Source: Burkholderiales bacterium PBB1
GTDB taxonomy: Bacteria; Pseudomonadota; Gammaproteobacteria; Burkholderiales; Burkholderiaceae_C
Direction: 5' to 3'
Assembly (NCBI GenBank): GCA_002255905.1
Contig: NKIN01000002.1
Span: forward strand, 248,001-312,000
DNA: 64,000 bases
The first letter of the stretch is position 1; each line of letters begins with the position of its first letter. This document shows positions 49,384 through 53,799 of the stretch, one piece after another. The position numbers were made by a program, and so were the translations under genes. The notes beneath the pieces were generated by a model. That model made no database searches. It was not told the origin of the DNA and saw nothing but the letters and a program-made list of their open reading frames with translations.

Positions 49384-51255
49384 ATGACTGACGCGGCGTC
49401 CTCCCCAGCCAACACCCGACCGAGTTCTCTCGGCCGCAGTTTCGGCCGCTTCGAGTTGTTGAAGCTGCTGGGCAAGAGCGACGGCAGCATGGTCTGGCTG
49501 GTGCTCGACCCGCAGCTCCAGCAGCAGCTGGTGCTGACGCTGCCTCGGGTGCAACCCATCGATGCCGGTGCACTCGAGCGCTGGTCGACGCAGGTCAGGC
49601 AAGCGGCACGGCTCGATCATCCGAACCTGGTGCCCGGCGTCGAGGTCGGCGTGCAGGAGCAGTGGCCCTATCTGGCGGCCGACCGCAATCGCGGTGTCAC
49701 GCTCGGTGAGTGGCTGGTCGAACACCCGAACCCGGCGCCGATCGAAGCGGTGCGCTGGGTCTGCGAAGTGCTGGAAGGCCTCGCCTTCGCACATGAATCC
49801 GGCGTGGCGCACCATGATCTGCAACTGCACAGCCTGCAGATCGGTGAGGCAGGCCACGTGCAGGTGATGGCCTTGGGCACTGCCAGCGGGCAGGGAACGC
49901 CGGCCATCGAGCCTGCCCGACGCGGGCTCGATCAAGCCACCCTGGTCGAGGCCGACGCCCTGCGTGCCCACCGCGAAGCGGCCGAGCGCGACGTGCTGGC
50001 CTGCGGTCTGCTGTTGCATCAGTTGCTCAGCGGCACCGCGGTGCTCGATGAGCCCGACATCTCGAAAGCACTGCGCCGGCTGCCCCCTTACGGACGCGAA
50101 CTGGTGCGCCTGCCGTGGAACACGGTGCATCCGATTCCCGAGGCCCTGCGCGCCATTGCCAACCGCAGCACGGCCGGCCAGCCCCGGCAACGCTACCTCA
50201 GTGCCCGCACGTTCCTGCGGGCATTGCAAGGCTGGCTCGAAGCCGAGGCGCTGGGCCGGGATGGCCCGCTCGAGCTGATGCTGGACCGCCTGCGCACCGT
50301 CGGTGCCTTGCCGGCGCTGGCGGGCATGAGCGGCCGGGTCGAGCGGCTCGCGGCGATGGACGGCCACCACACCGAGGAAATCTCGCGCCACATCCTGCGC
50401 GACATGGCCTTGACCTTCGAACTGCTGCGCGAGGTCAACTCGGCGCAGGTGCAGGGCACGCAGGCGTCGGGATCGGCGCCGGTGCTGACGATCCGCCGCG
50501 CGATTGCACTGATCGGTCTGAACGGTGTACGGCAGGCCGCCAATGGGTTGCGGCAGTGGCCCGGACCATTGTCCGAAGCCGGTGCGCAGGCCTTGCGAGC
50601 CCTGATGGACCGGGTGCGGCTGGCCGGCTTCACCGCACAGGCCCTGCGGCCAGCCGGCTACGACGCCGAGGTGGTGTACCTGGTGACGGTGTTCCAGAAC
50701 CTGGGGCGGCTGCTGGCCCAGTACCACTTCCCTGAGGAATACGAACAGATCCGTGTGTTGATGCGCAGCGTGCCGCCGCCGGCCGATGCACCGAAGGGCA
50801 CCGCACCGACGCCGGGCTGGAGCGAATCGGACGCCTCGTTCGCCGTGCTGGGCATCGACATCGAGGCGCTCGGCGCCGCGGTGGCCCGCCACTGGGGTTT
50901 GGGCGACGAGATGCTGCACATGATCCGCCGTCTGCCGACCGATCTGCCGGTGCGCACGCCCGACACCGACATCGATGTGCTGCGCATCACTGCAAGTGCG
51001 GCCAACGAGGCCGTCGATGCGGCGTCGAACCCCGCTGCCGAACCTGCCGCGGCGGGCAAGGCGGTGCGTGCCGGTGCCTCGCGCCCATCGGTGGCGATGC
51101 GTTACGCGCGCAGCCTCGGATTGACGCCGAAGCTGGTGCAAGAGGCGCTGGCCGCCGCACGCGATGCCTTGCGCACCGGTGAACCCGTGCAGACGGCGAC
51201 GCCGCGCGAAGAAGCGCCTCCGGCGACAGAAACCCCCACGGTCGCGGCCGGCTGA
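49384..51255 (+). CDS. Pseudokinase-HDOD regulatory protein
   Basis: 623 residues. Residues about 20-280 follow the protein kinase fold (FGRFELLKLLG; HHDLQLHS in place of HRDLKPSN), but key residues are gone when aligned with the next gene: the ATP-binding lysine is T52, the helix-C glutamate is Q70, the catalytic-loop lysine and asparagine are Q147 and S150, and DFG reads ALG (163-165). Only D145 remains. Residues about 295-500 form an HDOD domain (EISRHILRDMALTFELLREVNSAQ; VTVFQNLGRLLAQYHFPEEYEQI). The kinase part is probably a non-catalytic binding module. Tandem with a related active-looking kinase. Confidence 0.8.
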   Translation: MTDAASSPANTRPSSLGRSFGRFELLKLLGKSDGSMVWLVLDPQLQQQLVLTLPRVQPIDAGALERWSTQVRQAARLDHPNLVPGVEVGVQEQWPYLAADRNRGVTLGEWLVEHPNPAPIEAVRWVCEVLEGLAFAHESGVAHHDLQLHSLQIGEAGHVQVMALGTASGQGTPAIEPARRGLDQATLVEADALRAHREAAERDVLACGLLLHQLLSGTAVLDEPDISKALRRLPPYGRELVRLPWNTVHPIPEALRAIANRSTAGQPRQRYLSARTFLRALQGWLEAEALGRDGPLELMLDRLRTVGALPALAGMSGRVERLAAMDGHHTEEISRHILRDMALTFELLREVNSAQVQGTQASGSAPVLTIRRAIALIGLNGVRQAANGLRQWPGPLSEAGAQALRALMDRVRLAGFTAQALRPAGYDAEVVYLVTVFQNLGRLLAQYHFPEEYEQIRVLMRSVPPPADAPKGTAPTPGWSESDASFAVLGIDIEALGAAVARHWGLGDEMLHMIRRLPTDLPVRTPDTDIDVLRITASAANEAVDAASNPAAEPAAAGKAVRAGASRPSVAMRYARSLGLTPKLVQEALAAARDALRTGEPVQTATPREEAPPATETPTVAAG

Positions 51256-51342
51256 CATGGCGACCCCTGCGCGCGTTGAGTGTGCGTGCGCTCCCATACG
51301 CGGGTGCGCTGCGAACCGACCGAAAGACCAAGCGGCGCGGCC

Positions 51343-53799
51343 ATGGGTGTGATGTCCGCCCCTGAGACCACGCCACAGCGACTCAGCCGGTTCGAACTGC
51401 GGCGGATGCTGGGGCAGGGCGCACAGGCCAGCGTCTGGTTGGCCTTCGACCCGCACCTGGAGCGCGAGGTCGCCGTCAAGATCCTGCGCCGCAATGGCCT
51501 GGGCACTACCGGCGACGATGCCCAGTGGTTGCACGAGGCGCGCAGCGTCAGCCGGCTGACCCACCCGCACATCGTTCCGGTATTCGAGGCGGACGTGCAC
51601 GACGATCAGCCGTTTCTGGTCTTCGAGTATGTGGCGGGCCACACGCTGACCGAGGTGCTGCGCGCGCAGGGCGCCTACGAGCCCCACAAGGCCGTGGCGA
51701 TCGCCTCCGACATCCTCAGTGCCCTGCAGGCTGCGCATGAGGCAGGTTTGGTGCACCGCGACCTGAAGCCGTCCAATGTGCTGATCGATGCCGCCGGCCG
51801 CGCGCGGGTGATGGATTTCGGCATTGCGGTGAAGGTGAACGACGCGTCGCACGCCAATCGCGTGGTCGGCACGCCGGGCTACCTGTCGCCCGAAGCGGCG
51901 CTGGGCCTGTCGCCCACGCCGGCGATGGACGTGTTCGCTGCCGGGCTGCTGCTGGCCGAGCTGTTGGCGGGCCGGCGCGTGATGGTCGAGAGCGATGCGA
52001 ATCGCGCGGTGCAGCGCGCCATCAACGAAGACCAGACGCTGCCTGAGTGCACCAGCACCGATGTCGACGACAAGCTGCGCGCCATCGTGCTGCGGGCGAT
52101 GGCACGCGACACGGCCACGCGCTATCCGAGCGCTGCGGCCTTTCGCGAGGCCCTGCAGGCGTGGGCACAACCGGCGGCTGCCCCTGGAACGACGTCGGCT
52201 GCCTCCAGCAGCGGCACGCTCGACTTCCTGCTGCGCCGCATGCGGCACAAGAGCGATTTCCCGGCGCTGTCCGATGCGGTCTCGCGCATCCAGCGCGTGG
52301 CCACCTCGGAAACCGAGAGCCTGAACAGCCTGGCCAACGAGATCCTGAAGGACGTGGCGTTGACCAACAAGCTGCTGCGCGTGGTCAACACCGCCAGCTA
52401 CCGGCACGCAGGCGGTGGCAGCATCAGCACCATCTCGCGGGCGGCGGCGCTGGTCGGCTTTGCCGGCATCCGCAACATGGCGCTCAGCCTGGTGCTGCTC
52501 GAACACATGCAGGACAAATCGCATGCGAACGTGCTGAAAGAGGAGTTCCTGCGCTCGCTGCTGGCGGGGACGCTGGCCAGTGAGCTGTCGGTCTCCGGGC
52601 GCGAGAGCGAGGAGGCTTTCATTGGGTCGATGTTCCAGAACCTGGGCCGACTGCTCAGCGAGTTCTATTTCCCCGACGAGGCACGGCAGGTTCGAAGTCT
52701 GCTGAGCCGTGGTCTGGCCCCGGGCGAAGCCCCCCGCGCCGGCGCTGAAGAGTCTGCGTCGGTCCAGGTGTTGGGGCTGAGTTACGAAGCGCTCGGGGTG
52801 GGGGTGGCGAAATCCTGGGGTTTCCCGGACAGCCTGCAACGCTGCATGCGCAAACCTGCCGGTGATCCGCCGACCCGTACGCCCGAAGCCTCTGCCGAGC
52901 GGCTGCGCTGGCTGGCGATGGCCGCCAACGACCTGACCGACACGCTGCTGCGGGCCGATCCAGCCGAGGCGTCAGCGGCGTTGGCGCACACGGCTGCGCG
53001 CTATGCCCGCGTGCTGGGCCTCACCCCCAAGCACATCGCCGACGTGACGGCGCAGGCCCGCGTGAAGCTGGCCGATTCGGCACGCGCCATGAACCTGTCG
53101 GTCAGCAGCACCTCGCGCGCTGCAAGACTGCTCGCGCCACTGCCCGGCCAGGGCCACACCCAGACGGTGGGCGAAGTGCAGATCGCCGGCACCGATTCAC
53201 TGTCGCCGCACGCGCTGCAGGCCATGCAGGCCGCGCCGACCGAGGCGTTCGACGCGACCATCGTGGTGCCGCCGCCCGCTGCCGGCCCGGCCTCCGACAT
53301 CCTGGCGGCGGGCATCCAGGACATCACCAATTCAATGGTCGAGGACTTCAAGCTCAACGAGGTGTTGCGGATGATCCTCGAGACCATGTACCGCGCGTTG
53401 GGCTTCCGCCGAGTGCTGTTCTGTCTGCGAGATCCGAAGACCGACACCCTGACCGGCCGCTTCGGCCTCGGCGACAGCGCCGAGGCGGCGGCCGCGCTGT
53501 TCAAGGTGCCGCTGAAGGGCTCGACCGACCTGTTCGCCGCGGTCTGCCTGAAGGGCGCCGACACGCTGATCCGAGACGCCAGCACCCCGGCGATGGCCTC
53601 ACGCCTGCCGGCCTGGTACACGAAGACATTGAACGCGCCGTCGTTCCTGCTGCTGCCGTTGCTGATGAAGGGCGCACCATTCGCGATGATCTACGCGGAT
53701 CAGGCCGAAGCCGGCGGCATCGAGCTCGCCGAGAAAGAGCTGTCGATGCTGCGCACGCTGCGCAACCAGGCGGTGATGGCGTTCAAGCAGGCGAGCTGA
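51343..53799 (+). CDS. Serine/threonine kinase-HDOD-GAF signalling protein
   Basis: 818 residues in three parts. Kinase (about 14-290): glycine loop LGQGAQASVW, K46 in VAVKILRR, E65, HRDLKPSN (D140, K142, N145), D158 of DFG, and SPE at 182-184; all catalytic residues are present. HDOD (about 310-500): LANEILKDVALTNKLLRVVNTASYR and SMFQNLGRLLSEFYFPDEA. A GAF-like C-terminus (about 655-815) follows: DFKLNEVLRMILETMYRALGF. It starts at 51343 (or an ATG at 51352) in the 87 bases after the pseudokinase gene, and the domain order of the two proteins is the same up to HDOD. The substrate is unknown; the partner may be the neighbouring pseudokinase. Confidence 0.85.
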   Translation: MGVMSAPETTPQRLSRFELRRMLGQGAQASVWLAFDPHLEREVAVKILRRNGLGTTGDDAQWLHEARSVSRLTHPHIVPVFEADVHDDQPFLVFEYVAGHTLTEVLRAQGAYEPHKAVAIASDILSALQAAHEAGLVHRDLKPSNVLIDAAGRARVMDFGIAVKVNDASHANRVVGTPGYLSPEAALGLSPTPAMDVFAAGLLLAELLAGRRVMVESDANRAVQRAINEDQTLPECTSTDVDDKLRAIVLRAMARDTATRYPSAAAFREALQAWAQPAAAPGTTSAASSSGTLDFLLRRMRHKSDFPALSDAVSRIQRVATSETESLNSLANEILKDVALTNKLLRVVNTASYRHAGGGSISTISRAAALVGFAGIRNMALSLVLLEHMQDKSHANVLKEEFLRSLLAGTLASELSVSGRESEEAFIGSMFQNLGRLLSEFYFPDEARQVRSLLSRGLAPGEAPRAGAEESASVQVLGLSYEALGVGVAKSWGFPDSLQRCMRKPAGDPPTRTPEASAERLRWLAMAANDLTDTLLRADPAEASAALAHTAARYARVLGLTPKHIADVTAQARVKLADSARAMNLSVSSTSRAARLLAPLPGQGHTQTVGEVQIAGTDSLSPHALQAMQAAPTEAFDATIVVPPPAAGPASDILAAGIQDITNSMVEDFKLNEVLRMILETMYRALGFRRVLFCLRDPKTDTLTGRFGLGDSAEAAAALFKVPLKGSTDLFAAVCLKGADTLIRDASTPAMASRLPAWYTKTLNAPSFLLLPLLMKGAPFAMIYADQAEAGGIELAEKELSMLRTLRNQAVMAFKQAS

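What the first reader, a model, noticed from the sequence alone, without database searches (positions are those of the whole stretch)
49384..53799. Tandem pseudokinase-HDOD and active kinase-HDOD-GAF pair
The two adjacent genes share the order kinase fold then HDOD. The second has all catalytic residues (K46, E65, D140, K142, N145, D158). The first has lost the ATP lysine (T52), helix-C Glu (Q70), catalytic-loop Lys and Asn (Q147, S150) and the DFG Asp (A163), keeping only D145. This looks like duplication followed by decay of one kinase into a binding or allosteric partner, as in other pseudokinase-kinase pairs. A regulatory circuit coupling phosphorylation to HDOD signalling is plausible and, to my knowledge, undescribed.
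Basis: partly seen in the sequence, partly recalled or inferred. Interest (0 to 1): 0.7.

Follow-up and report, generated by a model that had tools for sequence, protein, structure and literature searches.

The report
Old dead kinase beside its twin
Two neighbouring bacterial genes arose by duplication of one signalling protein; the first copy lost its kinase residues long ago, is still kept under selection in many related bacteria, and is often kept even where its active-looking twin is missing, so it seems to do a job of its own.

Summary
Gene A (49384-51255) is a kinase fold plus HDOD with the catalytic residues gone; gene B (51343 or 51352 to 53799) is an intact-looking kinase-HDOD-GAF protein. 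The losses are old and fixed: 0 of 74 A sequences keep the ATP lysine, catalytic-loop lysine or DFG aspartate. A is one clade in an HDOD-only tree, seen only in the window's family, while B-like proteins reach wider. A's pseudokinase domain is under purifying selection, and the position facing ATP's adenine is Ala in 0 of 72.

For: 52 of 52 pairs lie A-then-B on one strand, 50 with at most 113 bases from A's stop to B's first aligned residue. Against: 21 of 68 genomes with A lack B, needing at least 10 changes on A's tree; in 13 B is missing from a kept locus; A shows no general speed-up there.

Best reading: A is an ATP-independent pseudokinase-HDOD regulator that may work with B but does not need it.

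The parts
49384..51255 (+). gene A: pseudokinase-HDOD protein, 623 aa
   Evidence: ATG start, residues as stated; Pfam Pkinase and HDOD; A-class in at least 68 of 200 family genomes
49462..50193 (+). A, pseudokinase domain (residues 27-270): T52, Q70, D145, Q147, S150, A163
   Evidence: conservation
50308..50928 (+). A, HDOD domain (residues 309-515)
   Evidence: only solved relatives found are two MmoQ entries, best E 4.1e-5
51343..53799 (+). gene B: kinase-HDOD-GAF protein (start 51343 or 51352)
   Evidence: B-type protein in 65 of 200 family genomes
51394..52122 (+). B, kinase domain with all six catalytic residues checked
   Evidence: (155.5 bits); closest solved relatives PknB and StkP
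52261..52851 (+). B, HDOD domain
   Evidence: 96.4 bits
53353..53781 (+). B, GAF domain
   Evidence: 24.8 bits, cut-off 22.4

Best explanation
Shown by sequence: B-like kinase-HDOD-GAF proteins occur in many families of the order and in scattered members of the class; A is a separate clade seen only in the window's family, has no GAF, has lost the ATP lysine, the catalytic-loop lysine and the metal-binding aspartate in every copy read, and is under purifying selection. Where both exist side by side, A lies directly upstream of B; in many genomes A stands in the same locus without B. Inferred: one duplication early in the family, decay of the upstream copy before it spread, and later repeated loss of B. 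Inferred: A's adenine pocket is filled, so A neither phosphorylates nor binds ATP in the usual way; its kinase fold serves as a binding platform and its HDOD domain is the output. Inferred: when B is present, A and B are co-transcribed and probably touch (kinase fold to kinase fold or HDOD to HDOD), B acting as one input to A or sharing a target with it; when B is gone, A works alone or with another kinase. What the output controls is unknown. HDOD proteins elsewhere act in motility, attachment and c-di-GMP signalling, which is the first place to look.
For: Losses fixed: of 74 A sequences, K72 0, K168 0 (Gln in 63), DFG Asp 0; HxD Asp kept in 69, structural D220 in 71 and R280 in 73; B: K72 68 of 69, D166 67, K168 67, N171 68, D184 69 (PKA numbering, recalled). 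A is one clade on HDOD alone, 26 of the 74 rows used, SH-aLRT 99. No A-class protein recognised outside the window's family: 104 of 108 matching order genomes are of other families and match A at 27-33%; all 48 loci read from that search (L125-L172) score higher with B. Pocket: the adenine-facing Ala of the VAVK strand (recalled from kinase structure) is Ala in 0 of 72 A (M/L/V/I in 67) and in 66 of 66 B; hinge Tyr is Arg in 62 of 72. A pseudokinase dN/dS 0.045-0.215 in the 11 comparisons printed, B kinase 0.073-0.084 in 5. Mean pairwise identity in 50 paired loci: A kinase .53, HDOD .56; B kinase .62, HDOD .66. Independence: 21 of 68 A genomes lack B; 10 changes, 7 forced; A/purM tip-branch ratio median 2.24 (12 A-only) against 1.81 (23 paired), p = 0.50. 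Packing: 52 of 52 same strand and order, 50 within 113 bases.
Against: Nothing here shows what A binds. Tight packing and a strong association of A and B (odds ratio 14, Fisher p 5e-15, not corrected for kinship) speak for a closer tie than 'optional'. Branch rates of A and B correlate beyond purM (partial rank r 0.59, 43 branches, 23 genomes), though a shared role or locus could give that. The rate test used 12 of 21 A-only and 23 of 50 paired rows and has little power; single A-only copies look fast (L097 ratio 7.83, L051 4.84), and comparisons with G103, the A-only species of the window's genus, gave higher dN/dS (0.112-0.215) than most of those of the window with its paired relatives (0.045-0.086, and 0.174 with L035). 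A few A keep E91 (9 of 74) or N171 (6 of 74), and the HxD Asp is kept in 69 of 74, which a pure scaffold would not need. The tree cannot tell gain of B from loss.
Confidence: 0.55

Rival explanations
1. One reading: A is a dedicated allosteric or scaffolding partner of kinase B, as in eukaryotic pseudokinase-kinase pairs, and the two form one phosphorylation circuit.
For: A-then-B on the same strand in 52 of 52, 50 within 113 bases; A and B co-occur in 47 of 200, odds ratio 14; rates of A and B correlate beyond purM, partial r 0.59; PknB-type kinases, B's closest solved relatives, dimerise (recalled).
Against: A alone in 21 of 68 A genomes, at least 10 changes, 7 forced, 13 with B missing from the kept locus, no general rate increase of A. 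B without A in 18 of 65, with all six catalytic residues in 15 of the 17 read.
Confidence: 0.27
2. A is not inert: it binds nucleotide through substituted residues, or does other chemistry such as AMPylation, as SelO does.
For: HxD Asp kept in 69 of 74 with Gln two residues on in 63; A-conserved Arg at R55 (0.99) and R101 (0.89) near the pocket; DLHK pseudokinases are modelled with ATP held by arginines, and SelO and SidJ have other activities (PMC12599244, section 13 and part 1 of section 4 read).
Against: No Ala at the adenine-facing position in 72, bulky aliphatic in 67; no Asp at DFG in any of 72; helix-C Glu, loop Asn and APE Glu not conserved.
Confidence: 0.07
3. Recent decay: A is a kinase gene on its way to becoming a pseudogene.
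For: Two of 68 genomes carry A in two reading frames (G056, G104), and four of the tabulated A matches contain a stop (G066, G139, G052, G104).
Against: Same three losses in 74 of 74, open frame and purifying selection, one deep clade.
Confidence: 0.01
4. A's HDOD is the only part that matters; the pseudokinase fold is a tolerated leftover.
For: In B's line HDOD-GAF proteins without an aligned kinase region group with B of the family; A's HDOD is slightly better conserved than its kinase fold (.56 against .53).
Against: A's pseudokinase domain keeps near-invariant residues of its own (P54, R55, W94, G132, R242, R275) and dN/dS of 0.045-0.215. No A without its kinase part was recognised, but the search favoured full-length ones.
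Confidence: 0.1

Closest known systems
PknB/StkP-type bacterial Ser/Thr kinases
   Same: Closest solved relatives of both kinase folds by sequence: PknB 1mru E 5.6e-44 for B, StkP 9ruj E 1.5e-18 for A
   Different: A lacks the catalytic residues; no PASTA match by Pfam in either; both are fused to HDOD. NCBIfam PknB_PASTA model far under its cut-off (74 and 241.5 of 450 bits)
DLHK pseudokinase family (PMC12599244)
   Same: Proteobacterial, keeps the HRD Asp, has lost the ATP lysine and DFG Asp (section 13 read)
   Different: A has 0 of 72 Arg at the loop position where the listed DLHK example has it, Asn at the loop end in only 6 of 72, and HDOD instead of helicase domains
HDOD proteins SadB, GsmR, HdpA and I2285
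   Same: HDOD output domain; SadB binds c-di-GMP, HdpA acts in attachment, GsmR in flagellar gene expression (passages of PMC6543031); I2285 mutants swim less (passages of PMC9040570)
   Different: None is described in those passages as carrying a kinase fold. The two papers differ on HDOD chemistry: no activity in the first, 'metal-dependent hydrolases' in the second
B-like kinase-HDOD-GAF proteins of the same order
   Same: Same architecture as B; the group to which A is joined by sequence
   Different: All six catalytic residues present in 40 of 52 rows read (two genes counted twice, two rows of the window's family); A lost GAF and catalysis
EssB/YukC pseudokinase
   Same: Bacterial pseudokinase with all three motifs degraded and a scaffolding role (PMC12599244, part 1 of section 4 read)
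   Different: Membrane part of type VII secretion

Membership tests
pseudokinase (general) | protein kinase fold | tested here: met
   Pfam Pkinase 38.3 bits over cut-off 31.7; sequence match to solved StkP and PknB. By sequence only; no structure was computed
pseudokinase (general) | loss of ATP lysine, catalytic loop residues or DFG Asp | tested here: met
   0 of 74 keep K72, K168 or D184
pseudokinase (general) | no phosphotransfer activity | not testable with these tools
   needs an assay
DLHK pseudokinases | HRD Asp kept with ATP lysine and DFG Asp lost | tested here: met
   family description from PMC12599244
DLHK pseudokinases | conserved Asn at the end of the catalytic loop | tested here: not met
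   6 of 72
DLHK pseudokinases | conserved Arg in the catalytic loop | tested here: not met
   Q 61, G 5, A 4, E 1, S 1 of 72 at the K168 position; the DLHK position was read off one example motif in the paper's Table 1
HDOD proteins | HDOD domain over the curated cut-off | tested here: met
   A 62.9, B 96.4 bits, cut-off 22.9
dedicated pseudokinase-kinase pair | adjacent genes on one strand | tested here: met
   52 of 52 same strand, A first; 50 within 113 bases, the two others being broken A; transcription not tested
dedicated pseudokinase-kinase pair | the pseudokinase is kept and lost together with its kinase | tested here: not met
   21 of 68 A genomes lack B; 10 changes; no general relaxation
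dedicated pseudokinase-kinase pair | physical contact and change of kinase activity | not testable with these tools
   needs pull-down and kinase assay
PASTA kinases (PknB/StkP) | PASTA repeats | tested here: not met
   no PASTA match in Pfam listed at E 10 or less, within HMMER's filters
PASTA kinases (PknB/StkP) | membrane anchor | not tested
   membrane spans were not computed

The most novel reading that the evidence does not exclude
A founds a distinct family of bacterial pseudokinases, joined to HDOD and confined to one family of Burkholderiales. It works as an ATP-independent switch that can be tuned by its active twin where that twin exists, and that outlived it where the twin was lost, so that the dead copy became the part worth keeping and the live kinase the disposable one.
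Probability: 0.3. Interest if true: 0.65.

Novelty: new variant of a known kind. Interest (0 to 1): 0.5.

Why it matters
The review consulted here says bacterial pseudokinases are largely unexplored experimentally (abstract) and discusses seven families; the word HDOD does not occur in its main text. This one comes with a natural experiment: of 200 related genomes, 47 have the dead and the live copy, 21 the dead one alone and 18 the live one alone. That makes the question of what a pseudokinase does for, or without, its active relative directly testable by deletion and binding in environmental bacteria.

Tried and rejected
Recent decay: rejected. DLHK membership: rejected on two features. A link through neighbouring genes: in the window A follows addA, and murI, purM and dnaX lie beyond B, but in relatives A also lies near rho, and genes beside B where it stands alone are varied (10 proteins scanned, 10 more neighbours of several kinds, comparison), so no pathway was read from the neighbours. 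Promoter and terminator scan: 0 promoter-like, 1 terminator-like site on the other strand, no more than in shuffles. NCBIfam hits (PknB_PASTA, MADS6 and others) are all far below their cut-offs and reflect the kinase fold only. General relaxation of A without B: not seen. Mirror-tree signal: present but weak as evidence. Other paper searches gave nothing on a kinase-HDOD protein in what was seen: 62 papers, 20 listed; 8; 4; 24, 20 listed; 53, 40 listed.

Rows dropped and limits. One search's list of places was capped, so 68 A genomes is a lower bound; the 68 were picked from it by strength of match and class. One search left out six partial reading frames, printed there. The tree left out the two broken A (L096, L099), and L033 was unlabelled because its contig ends after A; searches also needed a purM match of 330 residues or more in the locus. 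One search used 91 of 213 aligned rows; the placing of A relative to B of the family and B-like proteins of other families depends on a root that is not inferred. G001's A lies deepest in A there but not, and both trees flag it as a long branch. B counts G129 and G186, whose kinase is decayed, and G140, which groups with other families, but not G003 and G039, whose B-like proteins have decayed kinase regions. G187's B was not fetched. In one search only three candidates per genome were scored. In one search dS is high and does not rise with distance, so dN/dS is rough; only comparisons with the window or G103 were printed.

Full report
What is there. The two genes exist as described. A (49384-51255, 623 aa) carries a kinase fold (38.3 bits) and an HDOD domain (62.9 bits). 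B (51343 or 51352 to 53799) carries a strong kinase domain (155.5), HDOD (96.4) and GAF (24.8). The genome (3.25 Mb, 19 contigs) holds seven places each for HDOD and for kinase folds. Six named contigs encode close relatives of A: a Rubrivivax, a Rhizobacter and four Burkholderiales metagenome assemblies.

Are the losses fixed? Of 200 genomes of the window's family, at least 68 have A. From 94 loci (L031-L124), 74 A-class and 69 B-class sequences were aligned. A: lysine of the ATP site 0 of 74, catalytic-loop lysine 0 (Gln in 63), DFG Asp 0; HxD Asp kept in 69, helix-C Glu in 9, loop Asn in 6; structural Asp and Arg of the C-lobe in 71 and 73. B: 67 to 69 of 69 at the same catalytic positions. 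Class was set by full-length score, which could favour dead kinases; the A group is however recovered as one clade from the HDOD domain alone, 26 rows, SH-aLRT 99, in a quick tree. Since every A copy read is dead, the loss most simply predates their common ancestor. One duplication and one decay, early in the family, is the simplest account; the root of that tree is not inferred, and the stem of A is long (0.63).

Where does the parent come from? In 399 genomes of the order, 108 matched A at E 1e-30 or better; 104 of these are of other families, where matches have 27-33% identity to A. All 48 loci read from that search score higher with B than with A. Of 52 rows from them, 40 have all six catalytic residues (two genes counted twice, two rows of the window's family). 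In 274 genomes of the class, 22 have a B-like match, two of them in the window's family. Tandem copies of the B type also occur in other families (L153, L154 and L155 with both copies intact; L156 with the second, cut by the contig end, partly changed). In B's own line the kinase part is decayed in L118, L119, L180 and L181, and no kinase region aligned in ten HDOD-GAF proteins (L182-L189, L191, L192) that group with B of the family. Loss of the kinase is thus a repeated theme in this protein group.

Is A under selection? Yes. dN/dS of the pseudokinase domain among close relatives was 0.045-0.215 in the 11 comparisons printed, of B's kinase 0.073-0.084 in 5 (dS is high, so rough). Mean pairwise identity over 50 paired loci: A kinase .53, B kinase .62. 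A has near-invariant residues of its own in the kinase fold, among them P54, R55, W94, G132, R242 and R275 (70 rows).

Could A bind ATP? Probably not in the usual way. The alanine that packs on adenine (recalled from kinase structure) is never Ala in 72 A (M 31, L 21, V 11, I 4, others 5) and Ala in 66 of 66 B (L118-L120 left out); the hinge tyrosine is Arg in 62 of 72; the activation segment varies from 18 to 61 residues, median 33. No structure could be computed.

Do A and B belong together? For: 52 of 52 pairs are on one strand with A first, 50 with at most 113 bases from A's stop to B's first aligned residue; the other two are the broken A of L096 and L099. Co-occurrence in 200 genomes: both 47, A only 21, B only 18, neither 114; odds ratio 14, not corrected for kinship. 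Rates of A and B correlate beyond purM (partial r 0.59). Against: on A's tree (71 labelled rows: 50 with B, 21 without) at least 10 changes are needed, 7 forced by well-supported branches. In 13 of the 21 A-only loci purM follows on the same contig with no B between, including G103 of the window's own genus; of the 15 genomes searched in that genus, 11 show both, G103 A alone, and three are not decidable (A at a contig end, a fragment, or no match). The tree cannot tell gain from loss; loss is inferred because B sits in the same slot wherever it is present beside A. Where B is missing, A is not generally faster relative to purM: median ratio 2.24 (12 of the 21) against 1.81 (23 of the 50), p = 0.50. 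Against this, single A-only copies are fast (L097 7.83, L051 4.84), and comparisons with G103 gave dN/dS of 0.112-0.215 for the pseudokinase domain, though its A/purM ratio (3.08) lies within that of its six paired near relatives (0.62-3.91).

How it most likely works. A is a dead-kinase platform whose HDOD is the output; B, when present, is an adjacent, probably co-expressed active relative that may feed into it. The dependency is not obligate in either direction: 15 of the 17 B-only copies read have all six catalytic residues. HDOD proteins elsewhere bind c-di-GMP (SadB) and act in motility (GsmR, I2285) (passages read), but no such role was tested here.

What is known. Searches of the open-access paper library: 'HDOD' with 'pseudokinase' 0 papers; 'HDOD domain' with 'protein kinase domain' 0; 'HDOD' with 'threonine kinase' 1, whose passages do not describe a kinase-HDOD protein; 'pseudokinase' with 'Burkholderiales' 1, on caspase homologues by its abstract; 'HDOD' alone 53 papers, of which 40 listings were seen. 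The review of bacterial pseudokinases (PMC12599244; outline, passages, part 1 of section 4 and section 13 read) discusses seven families and has no occurrence of HDOD in its main text. A resembles its DLHK family in keeping the HRD Asp but fails two of its stated features. Subscription literature and preprints were not searched.

Noticed in passing
L107:2045-3217, L112:1977-3149, L114:4977-6149; loci L121, L180, L184, L185, L186, L192: In one sub-lineage of the family, B or its form with decayed or missing kinase part lies in the same stretch as rodA: Pfam FTSW_RODA directly downstream of B in L107, L112 and L114, by sequence similarity in the other six.
   Followed up: partly
L118:2355-4754 (G129): A single kinase-HDOD-GAF gene with a decayed kinase lies right after addA, in the slot that A usually holds, and groups next to A in the HDOD tree.
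   Followed up: no
L153, L154, L155, L156; G753:C113:10835-15555: Tandem kinase-HDOD-GAF copies in other families of the order and class; in L156 the second copy is partly changed and cut by the contig end.
   Followed up: partly
L182-L189, L191, L192: HDOD-GAF proteins in which no kinase region aligned group with B of the window's family, so the kinase was probably lost.
   Followed up: partly
L157-L168: Kinase-HDOD proteins with no GAF matched, in other families (L166 and L167 cut by contig ends); 8 of 12 have Thr, Asn or Ser in place of the catalytic-loop lysine.
   Followed up: no
L096, L099: A lies in two reading frames in two genomes (G056, G104), beside B.
   Followed up: no
L043:6954-8504: A third gene with HDOD-GAF similarity to B (29% identity) just downstream of the A-B pair.
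   Followed up: no
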